A DNA stretch of 64,000 nucleotides from the NCBI RefSeq assembly GCF_000231405.2, contig NZ_CP007032.1, positions 2,914,001 to 2,978,000 on the forward strand, in the 5' to 3' direction. Below, one piece after another: positions 19,212 through 53,548 of this stretch; the first letter of the stretch is position 1, and every line of letters begins with the position of its first letter. The stretch is from Desulfitobacterium metallireducens DSM 15288. GTDB lineage: Bacteria; Bacillota; Desulfitobacteriia; Desulfitobacteriales; Desulfitobacteriaceae. The notes under the pieces were generated by a model, which saw nothing but the letters and a program-made list of their open reading frames with translations, searched no databases and was not told where the DNA came from. The translations under genes and the position numbers were made by a program.

Positions 19212-19289
19212 TCCCTTCGGTGTAATTCAGATCGACTCTGAATCTGTACCACTTGGATTAGGCTTGACCTCAACCCTAGGTACACTTTC

Positions 19290-19358
19290 GCTCATAGTCA
19301 GGCCATTTACGGCAGCCCGGTAGAAACTTACAGACCCTATCTCTGCTATTATATGAAC
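19290..19358 (-). promoter_or_regulatory. Purine riboswitch, guanine class
   Basis: Minus-strand aptamer of 69 nt. P1 is GUUCAUA/UAUGAGC, P2 is GCAGA/UCUGU, the J2/3 core is GUUUCUACC, and the loop-L3 CCGUAAA is followed by GACUAUG. The pyrimidine in GAC-UAUG is C, which specifies guanine/hypoxanthine rather than adenine in this RNA family. Ligand binding should favour the downstream terminator and switch off the permease. Confidence 0.95.
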
Positions 19359-19403
19359 ACTCTATTCCATTAAAAAACGATTTTTCGTTCAACGACGTAT
19401 TTT

Positions 19404-21234: not shown

Positions 21235-22008
21235 TTATTTCGCCACAACATTTAAGAAAGACTGTGTTCTTTGTTGTGAAGGCTTTTCAAAAATTTCTTC
21301 AGGGGTACCTTCTTCGAGAATCTCCCCTTTGTCCATAAATATGACGCGATTTGCGACTTCCCGAGCAAAGCCCATTTCGTGAGTCACCACAATCATCGTC
21401 ATATGCTCTTCCGCTAATTGTCGCATGGCTTTTAGCACTTCACCGGTCAACTCTGGATCTAAGGCTGAGGTTGGCTCATCAAAAAGCATGATATCTGGTT
21501 TCATGGCCAGAGCCCGAGCAATCGCCACCCGTTGTTTCTGCCCGCCGGATAAGCGGGAAGGATAATTGTTCATTTTATCCTCCAGCCCGACTTTGCGCAA
21601 GAGTTCTTGAGCCACAGGCAATATCTCGGGATATTTAACCCCTTTGACGGTCATCGGCGCTTCGACCACGTTCTGAAGGACCGTTAAGTGAGGGAAGAGA
21701 TTAAATTGCTGAAATACCATACCCATTTTCCGACAGATCAGTCGTGCCTCAGGTTCGTTCGCATACTGAATTTTCCCCTCAGCATTTGTCGTTACGAGTT
21801 CTTCTCCTTCAATAACGATGGAGCCTTCATCAATCATCTCCAACCGATTTAAGCAGCGTAAAAAAGTGCTTTTTCCTGAACCTGAGGGTCCAATGATCGC
21901 CACAACTTCGCCTTTGGCAACCTCGAGCGAAATGCCTTTCAGCGCTTCAAACTGCTTGAACCGTTTATGAATATTCGTGGCTTGTATCATGATTTCTTTA
22001 TTTTCCAT
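21235..22008 (-). CDS. glnQ: Polar amino-acid ABC transporter, ATP-binding protein
   Basis: Cytoplasmic ATPase (257 residues) of a polar amino-acid importer. Walker A is GPSGSGKST, the Q-loop follows in [13 protein letters not shown], the ABC signature is LSGGQKQR, Walker B is [15 protein letters not shown] and the switch His is in VTHEMGF. The sequence is of the GlnQ/HisP/TcyC type. Last gene of a glnH-glnP-glnQ operon, 17 bp after the permease gene. Substrate is not determined by sequence; glutamine, histidine, arginine and cystine importers all look alike. Confidence 0.92.
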
Positions 22009-22770: not shown

Positions 22771-23574
22771 TTATTTTACAATATTTTTGCCAAACCATTT
22801 CTCGGAAATTTTAGCAGCAGAACCATCTGCTTTCATATCCTTAAGCGTTTTTTGGACTTTGTTCAGAAGTTCTGTATCATCCTTCCGGAATCCTACTCCA
22901 TAATCTTCAGTCCCAAAGGTTTCAGTTAAAACTGTATATACCCCTGGTTTTTTAGCGGTGTAGTACCGTCCGAAAACTTCATCAATAACAACCGCATCTA
23001 AACGGCTTGTTTGTAAATCCATTAACGCTTGCGAAAAATCGCCATAAAGCTTGAGTTCCTTAAACGATTTTTGAACGTCAGGTTCATTCGCAATTGCATC
23101 AACACTCGTACTTCCGTCCTGAGTTCCTACAACTTTACCCTTAAGATCGGCTTTCGTCTTAATTGAAGAATTTGCGGGTACAATGATAATTTGTTGGTTT
23201 GCCATATAAGGCTCAGTGAAAGCGATATTTTTCTTTCTTTCCTCTGTAATCGTTAAACCATTCCAAAGGGCATCCACTTTCTTACTGTTCAACTCGACTT
23301 CCTTACTGTTCCAATCAATCGGTTTGAATTCCACTTCCATATTTAAGCGTGAGGCCGCTTCTTTAGCCATGTCAACATCAAAACCGACGAGATTATTCTG
23401 CTCATCCCGGAAGCCCATCGGCGCAAAGGTATCATCCAAGCCGATTACGATTTTTTGCGGAGTTGCAGGAGCGGCAGGTTCCGTGGTCTTAGCCGAATCC
23501 TTCGTATTTCCACAACCTGTTAATAATAAGCCACTCATGACAACAAAAGCAATTGCACTTACTAACTTTTTCAT
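22771..23574 (-). CDS. glnH: Polar amino-acid ABC transporter, substrate-binding lipoprotein
   Basis: Extracellular binding lipoprotein (267 residues). The lipobox is LLLTGCGN, after a lysine-rich signal start MKKL. The bilobed family-3 fold is recognised by GLDDTFAPMGFRDEQNNLVGFDVDM, the segment typical of amino-acid binding proteins. ATG 23574 has AGGGG 8 bp upstream; the in-frame start at 23595 is less likely. A perfect short palindrome lies upstream in the promoter region. The amino-acid racemase operon directly upstream makes histidine a candidate substrate, but this is speculative. Confidence 0.9.
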   Translation of the reverse strand: MKKLVSAIAFVVMSGLLLTGCGNTKDSAKTTEPAAPATPQKIVIGLDDTFAPMGFRDEQNNLVGFDVDMAKEAASRLNMEVEFKPIDWNSKEVELNSKKVDALWNGLTITEERKKNIAFTEPYMANQQIIIVPANSSIKTKADLKGKVVGTQDGSTSVDAIANEPDVQKSFKELKLYGDFSQALMDLQTSRLDAVVIDEVFGRYYTAKKPGVYTVLTETFGTEDYGVGFRKDDTELLNKVQKTLKDMKADGSAAKISEKWFGKNIVK

Positions 23575-23750: not shown

Positions 23751-24560
23751 TTAACACTCAACTTCTATCTTTCTTAGAATTCCATCGGTATAAACCTTAC
23801 CCGATATGATTGCATCCACTAACTCCCGATTTTTTAAGGAAACGCTTGTATGGATGGCCTGTCCCGAGGGCTGTAAAACTTCTAACGTCTGATATGCGCT
23901 TTGATTTAGGCTCTTCAAAATTCCTAAAGCAACGGTTCCACTTCCGCACGCCGTTTCATAAAACAAGGTGTCAATGGATCTTACCCAAACTATGGGATGT
24001 ATTTTCAACTGTCGATCCATCTCCTCCAAGAATATCACTCCAACCGCTTCTGCTTCATCAATCTGAACTTGCCTTATTAGTTTCATCCCCGACTCTTTCA
24101 GTTTCTTTTTATCTTCCAGATATCTTTTGGCCGGTTCCGCTTCCACAATGATATGAATAATTCCTTTCATCTTGACCTTATAAATTCCGGGTTCAAGAAC
24201 GGTAACAACATCATCTCCTGAATAAATCGGCATTTGAGACCACGCGTTCCCTTCCTCATCTACCCCAGCCTTTAAGATTTCCTCTGCTCCAGAGACCTCA
24301 ATTTGAATTTCACCCGTTTTACCTTTTAGGTAATAATAGGCTGCACTTCGTGTGGCATTACCGCAAAACTCACCCCCAGCCATAACTAACTTAGGGGTTC
24401 CCTCGTTCTCAACAAAGCCAACCTGCTCAATATTTGTATCTACTTTCATTATTTCGTCATTGATTCTCTTTTTTAATTCACGACTATATCCTACCCCTTG
24501 CACTAATGCCGTATCATTACCACCAGGGCTGTAAATTTGATATTTAATTTTTCGTGTCAT
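23751..24560 (-). CDS. DapF-fold amino-acid racemase, CntK (histidine racemase)-like
   Basis: A PLP-independent two-cysteine racemase of the diaminopimelate epimerase fold, 269 residues. The catalytic pair is Cys66 in MAGGEFCGNATRS and Cys205 in YETACGSGTVALG. The N-terminus YSPGGNDTALV and the segment EQVGFVENEG resemble staphylococcal CntK, which makes D-histidine for staphylopine, more than housekeeping DapF, whose N-terminus has F-x-K-x-x-G-x-G-N-D. ATG 24560 has GGGAG 7 bp upstream. It is the third gene of an operon after a HisC-like aminotransferase and a TDT transporter. Its substrate is unproven; DapF itself is the main alternative. Confidence 0.75.
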   Translation of the reverse strand: MTRKIKYQIYSPGGNDTALVQGVGYSRELKKRINDEIMKVDTNIEQVGFVENEGTPKLVMAGGEFCGNATRSAAYYYLKGKTGEIQIEVSGAEEILKAGVDEEGNAWSQMPIYSGDDVVTVLEPGIYKVKMKGIIHIIVEAEPAKRYLEDKKKLKESGMKLIRQVQIDEAEAVGVIFLEEMDRQLKIHPIVWVRSIDTLFYETACGSGTVALGILKSLNQSAYQTLEVLQPSGQAIHTSVSLKNRELVDAIISGKVYTDGILRKIEVEC

Positions 24561-24573
24561 ATTAAGACTCCCT

Positions 24574-25731
24574 TTAAGACTCCCTGCTCTGAAGTGAGGA
24601 ATGACCATACACCTCAAGATGAGGTATCGGCGTCCCCGTGAACAGCTTACCGTTTATCGCACCTAACAGGGTTTGGCTAAAGGTATAGAGCCAAAGAAGA
24701 ACTAAAAGCACAATTAAGAAAGCGGTGTAGCCAAAGATCAGCGGGCTCTCAAAGATGGCCACAATCTTTTGACTAGCAAGAGTATACGCTGCCAAGGGAA
24801 AGATGAAGGCCCACCACGCCATACTGAACGGAATCCCCCCTCTGCGAATCTGGTATAAACAAATGAGGATAATCATCCCCAAAATCCAAATTCCAAATCC
24901 CCAAATCGCAACAGCTATAAGATCCGAAAGCTGGGTAGAGGCTAAGAGGCCCATTGAGTGGGCATTTTTCGAAGCATCAATAATCGCGCTAACCGCAAGC
25001 CCGACTGCACTCAAAAAGATCCCGAAAGAGGGTGTTGTTCCTGCGGAAGGGAGCGGATGGATAGCCAAGCGTACAAAAACAAGAGCACTGATGAAGATAA
25101 AGAGAAAAAAACCAATCCCAAATAAGGCTGTATTCACGATCAGAACGGATAAACTCCAGTTAGGGTGAAATTCTATCGTGAGTGTAAGCAAAGGATTTCC
25201 AATCAAAGAAACTGCCATGTTCGCTATGGGAGCCATAATCCAGGAAAAGTTAATCATTTCTGGTTCAGGTGTTTTCTCCAGCCTCATCATTTGAAATGTC
25301 GTGTAAAAGGTGAAAAAGGTTACTCCGACAATCGCAATGATCCAAAGCGCAAAAATCAGCGTATAGGTAAGGGCTTCCCCTAAATACTGACTCCAGATGA
25401 GGTAAATATTTGTTCCAAAAATGGCGGTCCCCACAGCCATCGTGACAAAGAAATTACCCGTAAGCGGGTGTAGCAAGTCACGGCGAGCATATTCATAGTA
25501 CTTGAACCAACGAAAGGTCCAAGGAATTAAGACGATAAAATAGAGAAGATCCGCCAGAGCCGCGATAGACATTCCAAAAAAATGACCCAAGGGTAAGGAA
25601 TTTTGCCAGAGATATAAGATGTTAGCTAGCCCGCCTGTGCCCATAATCACAGCGAACCAGGCTGGAGCTAAATATTTAATGTAATGACGTTCTTGCACTG
25701 CGAGTAACCACCTTTCGAAGTGATGAAACAT
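24574..25731 (-). CDS. TDT-family (TehA/Mae1/SLAC1) membrane transporter
   Basis: Integral membrane protein of 385 residues with about ten helices, recognised as the tellurite-resistance/dicarboxylate transporter family by the LAPAWFAVIMGTGGLANILY start and repeated helix-hairpin pattern. Members are anion channels or export dicarboxylates and sulfite. It is the middle gene of a three-gene operon, 13 bp after the aminotransferase gene and 13 bp before the racemase gene, so an organic anion made by this pathway is a reasonable cargo. The start is uncertain: GTG 25698 has a better ribosome site (AAAGGTGG, 9 bp) than ATG 25731. A duplicated GGGAGTCTTAA marks the junction with the next gene. Confidence 0.82.
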   Translation of the reverse strand: MFHHFERWLLAVQERHYIKYLAPAWFAVIMGTGGLANILYLWQNSLPLGHFFGMSIAALADLLYFIVLIPWTFRWFKYYEYARRDLLHPLTGNFFVTMAVGTAIFGTNIYLIWSQYLGEALTYTLIFALWIIAIVGVTFFTFYTTFQMMRLEKTPEPEMINFSWIMAPIANMAVSLIGNPLLTLTIEFHPNWSLSVLIVNTALFGIGFFLFIFISALVFVRLAIHPLPSAGTTPSFGIFLSAVGLAVSAIIDASKNAHSMGLLASTQLSDLIAVAIWGFGIWILGMIILICLYQIRRGGIPFSMAWWAFIFPLAAYTLASQKIVAIFESPLIFGYTAFLIVLLVLLWLYTFSQTLLGAINGKLFTGTPIPHLEVYGHSSLQSRES

Positions 25732-25744
25732 ATATGACCCAATA

Positions 25745-26806
25745 TCATCCGGCCGTTATCTTTCGCACTGCTTCGAGAAAGCGATCCATCTCGATATCGC
25801 TGCCAATACTGACTCGGAGGTAATTATCGATTCTCGGTTGTTTAAAATATCGGACAAGGATCGCTTCTTCTTTTAACTTCAAGAATAGTTCTTCTGCCTT
25901 GACGGTAGGATGACTTATGAAAATAAAGTTCGTCTTCGAGGGGATCACCTTAAAGCCCATTTTACCCAGTTCGTCTGATACCCTTTCTCGGGTCCGGATG
26001 ATTTTATTTCTCGTCGCTTGAAAATATGCTTCATCCTTAATGGCCTCAACTGCCCCAGCGAGAGCTAAGCGATCTAAGGTATAGGAATTGATCGAATTCT
26101 TGATTCTCTCTAAGCCCTGAATTAGCTCCTCCTGCCCTAGCGCAAAACCAACTCTTAAGCCGGCTAAAGATCGCGACTTAGAAAAAGTCTGAACGACCAA
26201 AAGATTAGGATATTGATCAATTAAGCTCTGTGCTGACTCACCGCCAAAATCAACATACGCTTCATCAACGATGACGACATGGTCCTGATTATGGTGCAAT
26301 ATTTCCTCAATCGCTTCAACCGTTATATATTCACCCGTAGGCGCATTGGGATTAGGAAAGATAATGCCGCCGTTAGGCTTAAAAAACTGCTCAACAGGGA
26401 GAGTAAAATCATCCTTTAACGGAATCAACTCATAATCAATTTTGAACAAGTTTGCGTACACAGGATAAAAGCTATAGGTTATGTCAGGGAATAAGACGGG
26501 AACCTCAGGATCAAAAAAAGCCATAAAAGCAAAGGCTAAGACTTCATCGGAACCATTGCCGAAGAAAATTTGCTCCTTCTTTAACCCACAATAATTGGCT
26601 AAGGTGCGCTTTAATTCCTCGCCATTAGGGTCAGGGTATAACTTTAAACTTTCATTCGCTGTAGCTTTGATCGCCTCAAGTACTTGAGTAGAGGGGGGAT
26701 ATGGGTTTTCATTCGTATTCAGTTTGACATAATTTCTATCTTTAGGCTGTTCTCCTGGCACATAAGGTTCAACACTAGCCACTAGTTTACTCCAATATTT
26801 GCTCAT
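25745..26806 (-). CDS. hisC: Histidinol-phosphate aminotransferase-like PLP enzyme
   Basis: Class I/II aminotransferase of 353 residues in the HisC subgroup. The PLP lysine is Lys210 in TFSKSRSLAGLRVG; other landmarks are NTNENPYPPS (31-40), GNGSDEVL (83-90), PNPNAPTGE (151-159) and the C-terminal LRVSIGSD. HisC catalyses transamination between imidazole-acetol phosphate and histidinol phosphate, and Firmicute versions also accept aromatic 2-oxo acids. No other histidine-biosynthesis gene is nearby. Instead it is first in an operon with a TDT transporter and a CntK-like racemase, so a specialised imidazole or aromatic amino-acid role is possible. Confidence 0.85.
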   Translation of the reverse strand: MSKYWSKLVASVEPYVPGEQPKDRNYVKLNTNENPYPPSTQVLEAIKATANESLKLYPDPNGEELKRTLANYCGLKKEQIFFGNGSDEVLAFAFMAFFDPEVPVLFPDITYSFYPVYANLFKIDYELIPLKDDFTLPVEQFFKPNGGIIFPNPNAPTGEYITVEAIEEILHHNQDHVVIVDEAYVDFGGESAQSLIDQYPNLLVVQTFSKSRSLAGLRVGFALGQEELIQGLERIKNSINSYTLDRLALAGAVEAIKDEAYFQATRNKIIRTRERVSDELGKMGFKVIPSKTNFIFISHPTVKAEELFLKLKEEAILVRYFKQPRIDNYLRVSIGSDIEMDRFLEAVRKITAG

Positions 26807-30732: not shown

Positions 30733-31527
30733 TTATCCCAAAAGCATCCGATCATTATCCATTTCTGAGCCACTTCGTTGTTCAAATTGCTCGATGAGCT
30801 TATCGATAGTCATATTGTTCCGCTCTTCGCCCTGAAGATCCAGGATAATTCGTCCTTCATGCATCATGATCGTACGTGTTCCGAATTCTAGAGAAGCCTT
30901 CATATTATGAGTAATCATAAGCGTACAAAGGTTTTCTTCGGTGACGAACTTCTGAGTTAAGCTCATTACCTTTTTAGCCGTTGCGGGATCAAGCGCTGCA
31001 GTGTGCTCATCAAGAAGGAGAAGTTTAGGCTTAACAATCGTCGCCATAAGCAAAGTTAACGCCTGTCGTTGCCCTCCGGAAAGCAATCCAACCTTCGACT
31101 TCAGTCGATTTTCCAGTCCCATATCCAAAAGTTCAAGACGCTCCTGTAATCGGTGGCTGTCCTTTTTGCGAAGTCCAGGTCTTAGACTTAAAGGTTCACC
31201 TTTAGCAAGAGCAATAGCCAAATTTTCCTCGATCGTCATATCAAAGGCAGTTCCTTTGAGGGGATCTTGAAAAACCCGACCAATCAGACGAGACCGTTTA
31301 TATTCCGAGTCAAACGTGACATCGTCTGCATCGAGCAAAATTTTGCCCTCATCAATCGAAAAAACCCCGGCAATACCGTTGAAAAGCGTCGACTTACCGG
31401 CACCATTGCCACCGATGACGGTCACAAACTCCCCTTCTTTTAGTGAAAGGTTAACCTTCTGAAGTGCTCGTTTCTCATTGATGCTTCCTTGAGCAAACGT
31501 TTTGCTGATGGATTTAATTTCTAGCAT
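30733..31527 (-). CDS. trpZ: ABC transporter ATP-binding protein (TrpZ type)
   Basis: ATPase (264 residues) of a LivF-like, TrpXYZ-type importer. Walker A is GGNGAGKST, the ABC signature is LSGGQRQALTL, Walker B is KLLLLDEHTAALDP with His in place of the common Pro after DE, and the switch His is in MITHNMKASLEFG. Located 21 bp after the permease gene. The T-box upstream of the operon and its apparent UGG specifier support tryptophan as substrate, which is the basis for the name. Confidence 0.75.
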   Translation of the reverse strand: MLEIKSISKTFAQGSINEKRALQKVNLSLKEGEFVTVIGGNGAGKSTLFNGIAGVFSIDEGKILLDADDVTFDSEYKRSRLIGRVFQDPLKGTAFDMTIEENLAIALAKGEPLSLRPGLRKKDSHRLQERLELLDMGLENRLKSKVGLLSGGQRQALTLLMATIVKPKLLLLDEHTAALDPATAKKVMSLTQKFVTEENLCTLMITHNMKASLEFGTRTIMMHEGRIILDLQGEERNNMTIDKLIEQFEQRSGSEMDNDRMLLG

Positions 31528-31548
31528 AAGGCTCTTTCCTCCCTTTCA

Positions 31549-32439
31549 CTATTGATGGTTATATTTGCGTCTCAACATAGAATAGCTATTTTTAAGCACA
31601 GGCATGGATAATGCAAGTGCGACAATTATAGCCGAGACAAGCTTGAGGTCCGTCGGAGGCATTCCTAGTTCCAAGGCAAAGGCAATAATCAGGCGGTAGA
31701 GAATTGAACCGAGGATAACAGCGACTAATCGGCGAAACAGCGTATTCACTCCGAAAACGGCTTCTCCAATAATCACCGATGCTAGACCGATAACCACCAT
31801 GCCGATTCCCATGCCCACATCGACAAAGGATTGTTCCTGAGCAATCAAGGCACCTGAAAGAGAAACAAGTGCATTTGAAAGGGCCATTCCAATCAAGATA
31901 ATTAAATCCGTATTTACCCCTTGGGAACGAACCATTTGGTCATTGTCCCCTGTCGCCCTCAGGGCAAAGCCGAGACGAGTTTTCAAGAAAAGATAGAATA
32001 AGAAGAGTACCCCAAGTAGAATGATCACATCGAAGATGAGACGAGCATAATTACCCGGTATGAGCTCTTCCACAAAGCTATACACCGTCGGTTTATTGAG
32101 AAGCGGAATATTGGCTTTGCCACCCATTACCTTAAGGTTAATGGAGTAGAGTCCCAGCATCGTTAAAATTCCCGCGAGCAGCGGTTGAATTTTGAGTTTC
32201 GTATGAAGAAGACCCGTGACACACCCTGCGCCTCCGCCTGCAATAAAGGCGAGAAGCAGACCCAAAAAGGGATGACCGCTGACACTCATAATCACGGAAA
32301 CTGCCGCACCCAGGGTAAAACCGCTATCCACCGTTAAATCTGGCATATTAAGCGAACGGAAGGAGAGAAAAACCCCCAGCGCTAAGATTGCATAGATAAT
32401 TCCCAGTTCTAAAGATCCCTGGAAAGCAGTGAGTGTCAT
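31549..32439 (-). CDS. trpY: ABC transporter permease (TrpY type)
   Basis: Membrane permease (296 residues, eight or nine helices) of the branched-chain-amino-acid/TrpY permease family (LivH-like). The N-terminal LELGIIYAILALGVFLSFRSLNMPDLTVDSGF and the EAA-like region LGFALRATGDNDQMVRSQGVNTD are typical. A single permease gene suggests a homodimer. It lies between the binding-protein and ATPase genes with short gaps (34 and 21 bp), consistent with one operon under the T-box. Confidence 0.8.
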   Translation of the reverse strand: MTLTAFQGSLELGIIYAILALGVFLSFRSLNMPDLTVDSGFTLGAAVSVIMSVSGHPFLGLLLAFIAGGGAGCVTGLLHTKLKIQPLLAGILTMLGLYSINLKVMGGKANIPLLNKPTVYSFVEELIPGNYARLIFDVIILLGVLFLFYLFLKTRLGFALRATGDNDQMVRSQGVNTDLIILIGMALSNALVSLSGALIAQEQSFVDVGMGIGMVVIGLASVIIGEAVFGVNTLFRRLVAVILGSILYRLIIAFALELGMPPTDLKLVSAIIVALALSMPVLKNSYSMLRRKYNHQ

Positions 32440-32473
32440 CAGTCTAATCCCCTTTACTTACTTGATTGATTTC

Positions 32474-33490
32474 TTATTTTCCAAAAATTTGAGCCGCTTG
32501 CTTTAGTACATCCTCTGGAAGCTTAATCCCGATCGTATCCGCTGTTTTTTGATTTACATAGATATCCATATCTGTCATAGTCTTCACAGGAATGTCTCCT
32601 GCTTTTTTACCCTTTAAGACCTCAACAGCCATTTTTGCCGTTTCTTTACCCAGAACCGTGTAGTTAATACCATAGGTTGCAAGTCCGCCATCCTTAACCA
32701 TGGAATCCGCTCCGACATAGACAGGAATTTTAGCTGCATTTGCGGTTTGCGCAACAAGGGGCATCGCTGAGGCAATGGTGTTATCAATTGGCGAGAAAAT
32801 CGCATCTACTTTACCGACTAGAGAATTCATCGCTTGCTGAACTTCAGAGGAGTTCGTAACCGTCGCATTAACAACGGTTATATTGTTTTTCTGAGCATAT
32901 TCCTTTAAATTGTCGATTACTGATACGGAATTCGTTTCACTGGTATTATACAAAGCGCCAACAGTCTTAACATTAGGTGTAATCCGCTTCGCAAGCTCCA
33001 TAATCTCTTCAGCAGAGACGCGATCTGAAGTACCCGTAACATTACCGCCGGGGTTATTCATATCCTTCACCAAACCTGAACCGACTGGATCGGTTGCAGC
33101 GGAAAAGATAATCGGAATGTTCTTGGTTTCGCTGACAACAGCTTGAGCAGACGGCGTTGCAATGGCGATAATTAAATCATATTTATTATTTACAAACTTT
33201 TGAGAAATAGTTTTTAAATTAGATTGATCACCTTGAGCATTTTGATAGTCAATGGTAATATTTTCACCATCTTTGTATCCTTGTGCTGCTAATTCGTTGA
33301 TAATTGATTCGCGAATCTGATTTAACGAAGGATGTTCAACGATTTGGATGATCCCTATTTTCTTAGGTGCTGAAGAATTCGCTGTATTACTGGATTTTGA
33401 TTGAGACTGAGTTGTTCCACAGCCTGCCACTGATAATACCAAAGCAAGCATTAAAATCACAGATACCATAGCCGTTAATTTCTTTTTCAT
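32474..33490 (-). CDS. trpX: ABC transporter substrate-binding lipoprotein (TrpX type)
   Basis: Extracellular binding lipoprotein (338 residues) of the PF04392 type. The lipobox is LSVAGCGT after a classical signal peptide, followed by a Ser/Asn-rich linker (about 24-42). Characteristic segments are GIIQIVEHPSLNQIR, IPIIFSAATDPVGSGLV and DAIFSPIDNTIASAMPLV, with the ligand pocket between two lobes. This family is the predicted tryptophan/tyrosine importer TrpXYZ of Firmicutes. It is the first gene after a T-box leader. GGAGG precedes the ATG. Confidence 0.8.
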   Translation of the reverse strand: MKKKLTAMVSVILMLALVLSVAGCGTTQSQSKSSNTANSSAPKKIGIIQIVEHPSLNQIRESIINELAAQGYKDGENITIDYQNAQGDQSNLKTISQKFVNNKYDLIIAIATPSAQAVVSETKNIPIIFSAATDPVGSGLVKDMNNPGGNVTGTSDRVSAEEIMELAKRITPNVKTVGALYNTSETNSVSVIDNLKEYAQKNNITVVNATVTNSSEVQQAMNSLVGKVDAIFSPIDNTIASAMPLVAQTANAAKIPVYVGADSMVKDGGLATYGINYTVLGKETAKMAVEVLKGKKAGDIPVKTMTDMDIYVNQKTADTIGIKLPEDVLKQAAQIFGK

Positions 33491-33596: not shown

Positions 33597-33885
33597 ACTA
33601 AAAAATGCCTGTCCTTAAACCTAAATTTAAGGACAGGCATTATAACCTGCGGTACCACCTTAATTGATGCATATCATTTCAATTCGACATATGCATCCTC
33701 TTGTGCAGAGTGCCATCACACCCTTAGCCCAATAACGCTGGCTATGCGTCGGTAGCTACTTAAGCATCTTGTACTTTTTCGCTCCGCCCTCAAAGGCCCA
33801 TTTACCCGCTCCGTTACCTGTCAGGCTCCCACCTACCCTGACTCTCTAAGAAGTTGGTCTTGCGGTTTTACTTCCTCATCAACGG
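33597..33885 (-). promoter_or_regulatory. T-box leader, probably tryptophan-specific
   Basis: On the minus strand a stem I with an AGAGAG element (near 33845) is followed by the T-box AAGGUGGUACCGCAGG (33647-33662) and a terminator AUGCCUGUCCUUAAA / UUUAAGGACAGGCAU with a U run (33597-33640). In the 3' side of stem I, AAAUGGGCC lies opposite a GAAGUAAA segment, so UGG (Trp) is the likely specifier. Uncharged tRNA-Trp would stabilise the antiterminator and turn on trpXYZ. The specifier was assigned by eye. Confidence 0.88.
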
Positions 33886-33893
33886 TTTTATAT

Positions 33894-53398: not shown

Positions 53399-53548
53399 AA
53401 ACCTCTTTCATAAGAAAGAGGTTTATTCGCAATACTTCCTCTCTCATCTATCAATGTTTCCATCGCAGGAATTGGCACCGCTGTATTACAAAATACCGGT
53501 TGCCGGGTTTCATCGGGCCAGTCCCTCCACCACTCTTGATAAGAAGTT
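53399..53548 (-). promoter_or_regulatory. SAM-I riboswitch (S-box) with terminator
   Basis: Minus-strand leader with S-box core elements CUUAUCAAGAG, GGUGGAGGGACUGGCCC, GAUGAAACCCGGCAACC and GGUGCCAAUUCCUGC; P1 closes with GAUGAG near 53443. The terminator AAACCUCUUUC / GAAAGAGGUUU (53399-53428) and its T run end 15 bp before the first metA in-frame ATG. SAM should switch off metA and possibly the HD gene. Confidence 0.96.

What the first reader, a model, noticed from the sequence alone, without database searches (positions are those of the whole stretch)
23751..26806. Operon of HisC-like aminotransferase, TDT transporter and CntK-like racemase: candidate undescribed imidazole/D-amino-acid system
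Seen: three genes with 13-bp gaps in one direction. The racemase has the two-cysteine DapF fold with CntK-like N-terminus (SPGGNDTALV, EQVGFVE), and the aminotransferase is a stand-alone HisC. Known: CntK makes D-His for the metallophore staphylopine; HisC-type enzymes act on imidazole or aromatic keto acids; TDT proteins move organic anions. Inference: the operon could make and export a D-histidine-derived or imidazole-pyruvate/lactate-type compound, or salvage D-amino acids. A polar amino-acid importer operon follows in the same direction.
Basis: partly seen in the sequence, partly recalled or inferred. Interest (0 to 1): 0.7.

Follow-up and report, generated by a model that had tools for sequence, protein, structure and literature searches.

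The report
Histidine-racemase-like gene behind lone hisC
Three neighbouring bacterial genes read as one exotic pathway turn out to be the genome's ordinary histidine-making aminotransferase, an unrelated anion transporter and a probable histidine racemase of a little-known branch, which sits beside a probable histidine importer and most likely recycles D-histidine.

Summary
The three genes are real, but they are not a conserved system. The HisC-like protein is the only one in the genome above the HisC cut-off, and the genome's his operon lacks hisC. Its 67-75% relatives in Dehalobacter-like genomes lie beside a hisC-less his operon, while other relatives keep a different hisC between hisD and hisB. 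So it is the ordinary histidine-biosynthesis enzyme. The TDT transporter is widespread in the class as a stand-alone gene. None of 59 racemase loci surveyed elsewhere has HisC or TDT nearby. The racemase is not DapF: it keeps every catalytic and proposed imidazole-contact residue of the histidine racemases CntK and HisR, and its model fits them best (Z 30 and 28.5, against 23-24 for HypE/DapF). It forms its own well-supported clade and falls far below both NCBIfam cut-offs. Next to it is an amino-acid ABC importer whose binding protein is 36% identical to a histidine-bound one (4ohn). Related racemases stand beside similar binding proteins in two other lineages, and in histidine-degradation operons in others. 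Best reading: a histidine racemase recovering imported D-histidine. Substrate and direction are unproven.

The parts
25745..26806 (-). hisC, histidinol-phosphate aminotransferase; the only HisC of the genome
   Evidence: TIGR01141 318.8 bits, cut-off 276.55; only gene above cut-off; his operon without hisC; orthologs beside hisC-less his operons
24574..25731 (-). TDT/SLAC1-family anion transporter (probable start GTG 25698); probably a passenger
   Evidence: PF03595 199.2 bits; below TIGR00816 cut-off; stand-alone orthologs in about 30 genomes of the class
23751..24560 (-). cofactor-independent two-cysteine racemase, CntK/HisR-like, own subclade; probable histidine racemase
22771..23574 (-). 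solute-binding protein (family 3) of the adjacent polar amino-acid ABC importer; probable histidine binder
   Evidence: PF00497; 36% to histidine-bound 4ohn; shared IDW..KE.EL..WNG residues
22026..22679 (-). permease of the importer
   Evidence: PF00528, TIGR01726 above cut-off
21235..22008 (-). ATPase of the importer
   Evidence: PF00005; polar amino-acid type

Best explanation
The stretch joins three genes of different history. HisC (25745-26806) is the ordinary histidinol-phosphate aminotransferase that the genome's his operon lacks. TDT (24574-25731) is a transporter common in the class, with no demonstrated link to the other two. The third gene (23751-24560) encodes a cofactor-independent, two-cysteine racemase of the CntK/HisR superfamily, in a subclade of its own. 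Most likely it interconverts D- and L-histidine (Cys66 and Cys205 as the two acid/base thiols; Glu45, Glu64 and Glu202 around the imidazole) and, with the amino-acid ABC importer next to it, lets the cell use external D-histidine as L-histidine. Shown: gene identities, absence of hisC from the his operon, racemase clade and active-site residues, importer similarity to a histidine-bound protein. Inferred: histidine as substrate, the D-to-L direction, coupling with the importer.
For: HisC: only gene above TIGR01141 cut-off, his operon without hisC, orthologs beside hisC-less his operons in four genomes, different hisC inside the operon in five others. Racemase: best profiles CntK and HisR, invariant catalytic and imidazole-contact residues (residues named in PMC11602996), model nearest to CntK Z 30.1 and HisR Z 28.5 against HypE 24.2 and DapF 22.8, DapF elsewhere in the genome. 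Importer: binding protein like histidine-bound 4ohn. Racemase relatives beside such binding proteins in G429 and in ten genomes of another family, and in hut operons elsewhere.
Against: The racemase clade is separate from all characterised histidine racemases and scores far below their equivalog cut-offs (99.8 against 300, 89.2 against 400). Its nearest clade outside the class sits behind a MatE transporter, not a histidine gene. Importer orthologs occur without the racemase, so the pairing is not obligatory. The G429 binding protein is only 29% identical to the window's. Adding D-His did not restore the growth of the hisR mutant in Fusobacterium (PMC11602996).
Confidence: 0.55

Rival explanations
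1. The racemase subclade acts on an amino acid other than histidine, and the importer carries that amino acid.
For: Own clade on a long stem; far below both histidine-racemase cut-offs; neighbours of the nearest clade are not histidine genes; binding proteins of this family take many ligands.
Against: All three glutamates proposed to hold the imidazole are kept (PMC11602996), the model is nearest to CntK and HisR, and the closest ligand-bound natural binding protein by sequence holds histidine.
Confidence: 0.27
2. The racemase makes D-histidine from L-histidine as an end product or building block, in the way CntK does, rather than salvaging it.
For: CntK works this way (PMC7438024); relatives lie in cnt operons.
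Against: No cntL/cntM-like genes beside it; no opine dehydrogenase found in the genome, although the control of that search was silent too; the importer next door points to uptake.
Confidence: 0.11
3. One reading: a dedicated operon in which HisC, TDT and racemase together make and export a D-histidine-derived or imidazole compound.
For: The three genes are adjacent, on one strand and closely spaced.
Against: None of 59 other racemase loci has HisC or TDT nearby; HisC and TDT are each explained without the others.
Confidence: 0.05
4. The third gene is a DapF paralog acting on LL-diaminopimelate.
For: Shared fold and a weak DAP_epimerase hit (18.6 bits).
Against: Below Pfam and TIGR00652 cut-offs; a bona fide dapF lies elsewhere in the genome; DapF is separated from the whole racemase group with full support.
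Confidence: 0.02

Closest known systems
HisR, histidine racemase of Fusobacterium nucleatum (PDB 9cr1, PMC11602996)
   Same: Fold (Z 28.5), two cysteines, proposed imidazole-contact glutamates; not in a metallophore cluster
   Different: About 29% identity, different clade, different neighbours; below the HisR equivalog cut-off
CntK, histidine racemase of staphylopine synthesis (PDB 6jiw)
   Same: Nearest structure (Z 30.1), same active-site residues
   Different: About 26% identity (S. epidermidis CntK); window gene has no cntL/cntM or Opp-type importer beside it
HisC, histidinol-phosphate aminotransferase (TIGR01141)
   Same: Above cut-off; only copy; fills the gap of the his operon
   Different: Lies outside the his operon, with an unrelated transporter and a racemase behind it
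4ohn, histidine-bound ABC solute-binding protein of Streptococcus pneumoniae
   Same: 36% identity, same fold, shared IDW..KE.EL..WNG residues
   Different: Ligand of the window protein untested; 3hv1 is equally close and its title names no ligand

Membership tests
CntK/HisR-like cofactor-independent histidine racemases (wider group) | Two catalytic cysteines and the glutamates proposed to contact imidazole | tested here: met
   E45, E64, C66, E202, C205 invariant in 19 sequences including CntK and HisR (residues from PMC11602996)
CntK/HisR-like cofactor-independent histidine racemases (wider group) | Fold nearest to CntK and HisR among solved structures | tested here: met
   CntK Z 30.1, HisR Z 28.5, next group 24.2 and below
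CntK/HisR-like cofactor-independent histidine racemases (wider group) | Racemises histidine | not testable with these tools
   Needs purified enzyme
CntK proper (NF033599) | Score above the equivalog cut-off; staphylopine gene cluster | tested here: not met
   99.8 against 300 bits; no cntL/cntM neighbours; outside the cnt clade
HisR proper (NF052224) | Score above the equivalog cut-off | tested here: not met
   89.2 against 400 bits; outside the HisR clade
DapF | PF01678 and TIGR00652 cut-offs; groups with DapF | tested here: not met
   18.6 against 34.7 and 25.3 against 114.65 bits; separate in the tree
HisC (TIGR01141) | Score above cut-off | tested here: met
   318.8 against 276.55 bits
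HisC (TIGR01141) | Genome makes histidine and has no other HisC | tested here: met
   Full his operon without hisC; no second gene above cut-off
SLAC1/TDT transporters | PF03595 domain over the whole protein | tested here: met
   199.2 bits, profile 2-331 of 331
TDT subfamily TIGR00816 | Score above cut-off | tested here: not met
   147.5 against 237.25 bits
   0 of 59 other racemase loci with HisC or TDT within 6.5 kb

The most novel reading that the evidence does not exclude
The window racemase defines a third, undescribed branch of cofactor-independent histidine racemases. Across anaerobes the main job of this superfamily outside metallophore synthesis is D-histidine salvage, coupled to histidine-binding ABC importers or to histidine-degradation operons, which would answer the open question of why HisR exists.
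Probability: 0.35. Interest if true: 0.5.

Novelty: new member of a known kind. Interest (0 to 1): 0.33.

Why it matters
Only two cofactor-independent histidine racemases have been characterised, and the authors of HisR state that its purpose is unclear (PMC11602996). The neighbourhoods found here (histidine-type binding proteins, hut operons) give a simple, testable role: returning D-histidine to the L-histidine pool. The hisC result also corrects a likely over-reading: a lone hisC in a genome whose his operon lacks one is displaced housekeeping, not a new pathway.

Tried and rejected
Conserved three-gene operon: rejected by the census of 59 racemase loci and by the separate distributions of racemase, HisC and TDT in 83 genomes. 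HisC as a special imidazole or aromatic aminotransferase: no need, since it is the only HisC and fills the gap in the his operon. DapF: rejected. Metallophore cluster: no cntL/cntM beside it; the genome-wide opine-dehydrogenase search found nothing, but its control was silent too, so absence is not shown. Histidine degradation in this genome: no HutH found, control rang. Obligatory racemase-importer pairing: not so, because importer orthologs occur without the racemase and in three relatives directly follow the ABC operon that lies at 30733-33490 in the window. Literature: one paper holds D-histidine, histidine ammonia-lyase and racemase together; I did not read it, its title concerns lyase kinetics; other searches found nothing. 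Base composition of the racemase gene (GC3 0.37) is within the range of its neighbours, so it gives no sign of recent transfer.

Full report
Observation. The three ORFs exist as described on the minus strand: hisC-like 25745-26806, TDT 24574-25731, racemase 23751-24617. The racemase start is most likely ATG 24560, which leaves 13 bp to TDT. TDT orthologs begin at the residues encoded from GTG 25698, so the hisC-TDT gap is probably 46 bp rather than 13. A complete amino-acid ABC importer follows 176 bp downstream (binding protein, permease, ATPase), with no terminator-like site between. rex lies upstream behind a hairpin with a T-run visible in the sequence. The window is part of a single-contig genome of 3.18 Mb.

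HisC. The protein scores 318.8 bits against the HisC cut-off of 276.55 and is the only gene of the genome above it. The genome's histidine operon reads hisZ, hisG, hisD, hisB, hisH, hisA, hisF, hisIE and has no hisC (HisD hit; ORFs of L032; apart from HisD the gene names are my reading of sequence and order, and they match gene by gene across relatives). Orthologs with 67-75% identity occur in 12 genomes of the class. In four Dehalobacter-like genomes (the name is my inference from size and gene content) they lie divergently right beside hisZGDBHAF, which again lacks hisC. Five other relatives carry a different HisC (30-36% identity) between hisD and hisB. The window gene is therefore the histidine-biosynthesis aminotransferase that stands in for the in-operon hisC. 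No imidazole specialty pathway is needed to explain it.

TDT. The transporter is a full SLAC1/TDT family member (PF03595 199.2 bits), though below the TIGR00816 subfamily cut-off. Orthologs at 55-76% identity occur in about 30 genomes of the class. In the eight genomes inspected it stands next to LysR-type regulators, malic-enzyme-like or unrelated genes, never next to HisC or the racemase (neighbour names are my reading). It is probably a passenger. Its substrate cannot be told.

Racemase, what it is. It is not DapF: Pfam and TIGR cut-offs are missed, and a true dapF lies elsewhere in the genome. The best profile hits are the histidine racemases CntK (E 1.9e-28) and HisR (E 3.4e-25), but at 99.8 and 89.2 bits they are far below the equivalog cut-offs of 300 and 400. 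In a tree of 60 sequences it forms a clade (SH-aLRT 100) with one genome of its own family (G429, 46% identity) and five genomes of another family of the phylum (about 37%). This clade lies outside the group of CntK, HisR and most hut-associated racemases, and very far from DapF. The tree was a quick one, without bootstraps. Across 19 sequences including a CntK and a HisR, N15, T17, E45, E64, C66, G67, N68, E202 and C205 are invariant. These correspond to the catalytic cysteines and to all three glutamates that two studies propose as imidazole contacts (PMC11602996). The AlphaFold2 model (pLDDT 93.3) matches CntK at Z 30.1 and HisR at 28.5, then hydroxyproline epimerase at 24.2 and DapF at 22.8. 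The alignment behind the model held other members of the superfamily, so the model is not fully independent of the family choice.

Racemase, neighbours. In the class it occurs in only 2 of 83 genomes, and in a draw across the phylum in 16 of 398. I took 59 other racemase loci and looked within 6.5 kb, as far as contigs allowed. None has HisC or TDT. Eleven have a family-3 binding protein within 1.2 kb on the same strand: ten genomes of one family (50-52% identity to the window protein in the four aligned) and G429, where binding protein, permease, ATPase and racemase stand in one row. A twelfth has only a 26% match 3.6 kb away. Five have hut genes, among them a Cetobacterium plasmid with hutU-hutI-hutG-racemase; hut gene families were checked. 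Five have cnt genes, and five (the nearest clade) follow a MatE transporter. The ten genomes of one family are one event, so binding-protein neighbours have arisen about three times, counting the window.

Importer. The window binding protein is 36% identical to 4ohn, whose title states bound histidine. Both carry IDW..KE.EL..WNG, as do the binding proteins beside the other racemases, whereas the Arg/Gln-binding AncQR does not. A slightly relaxed pattern is found in 6 of 30 class relatives of the binding protein, the window's included. That these residues read histidine is inference. Importer orthologs occur in relatives without the racemase; in three of them they directly follow the ABC operon that lies at 30733-33490 in the window. 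The block from there to the racemase was thus inserted next to the importer in this lineage, or lost in the others.

Mechanism. Most likely two-base racemisation of histidine by Cys66 and Cys205, acting on D-histidine taken up by the adjacent importer and feeding the L-histidine pool that HisC also serves. No histidine ammonia-lyase was found in the genome, so degradation is probably not the purpose here. Histidine as substrate, the D-to-L direction and the coupling are inference; the family mechanism rests on published work on HisR (PMC11602996).

Verdict. An ordinary hisC, a passenger transporter, and a new distant member of the CntK/HisR-like racemases. The claimed three-gene system is not supported. 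The salvage idea is plausible and testable by a simple NMR assay.

Noticed in passing
L042, L044, L049, L134, L198: CntK/HisR-like racemase genes lie inside or beside histidine-degradation (hut) operons in several anaerobes, including a Cetobacterium plasmid (hutU-hutI-hutG-racemase). This suggests D-histidine salvage as a role for HisR-type enzymes.
   Followed up: partly
L047, L171, L172, L175, L176, L197: In one family a NhaC-type antiporter gene, a racemase gene and a lone amino-acid binding-protein gene stand in a row, with no permease or ATPase seen next to the binding protein.
   Followed up: partly
L036, L163-L166: The nearest clade of the window racemase sits directly behind a MatE transporter gene (with a kinase-type ATPase domain at its end in L036) and, in L036, before a Cache-HAMP-SpoIIE regulator.
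   Followed up: partly
L032 7124-12556; L240, L241, L242, L243, L245: hisC displacement: relatives keep a 30-36% different hisC between hisD and hisB, while the window's genome has no hisC there and uses the gene at window 25745-26806.
   Followed up: yes
L049 8588-9896: A racemase gene seems cut short and runs into a partial extra copy of histidine ammonia-lyase, as if rearranged.
   Followed up: no
window 33626-33891, 53441-53545, 19275-19376 (minus): Rfam finds a T-box leader before the ABC operon at 30733-33490, a SAM riboswitch and a purine riboswitch.
   Followed up: no
L129 7046-8152: A second TDT gene of the genome (42% identity) lies among genes that read like an arsenic-resistance cluster (ArsR-, ArsC- and ACR3-like, my reading of the sequences).
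   Followed up: no
L037 3211-3897: The G429 racemase lacks about 28 residues in its second half and has CLSGT instead of CGSGT at the second cysteine; it may be altered or inactive.
   Followed up: no
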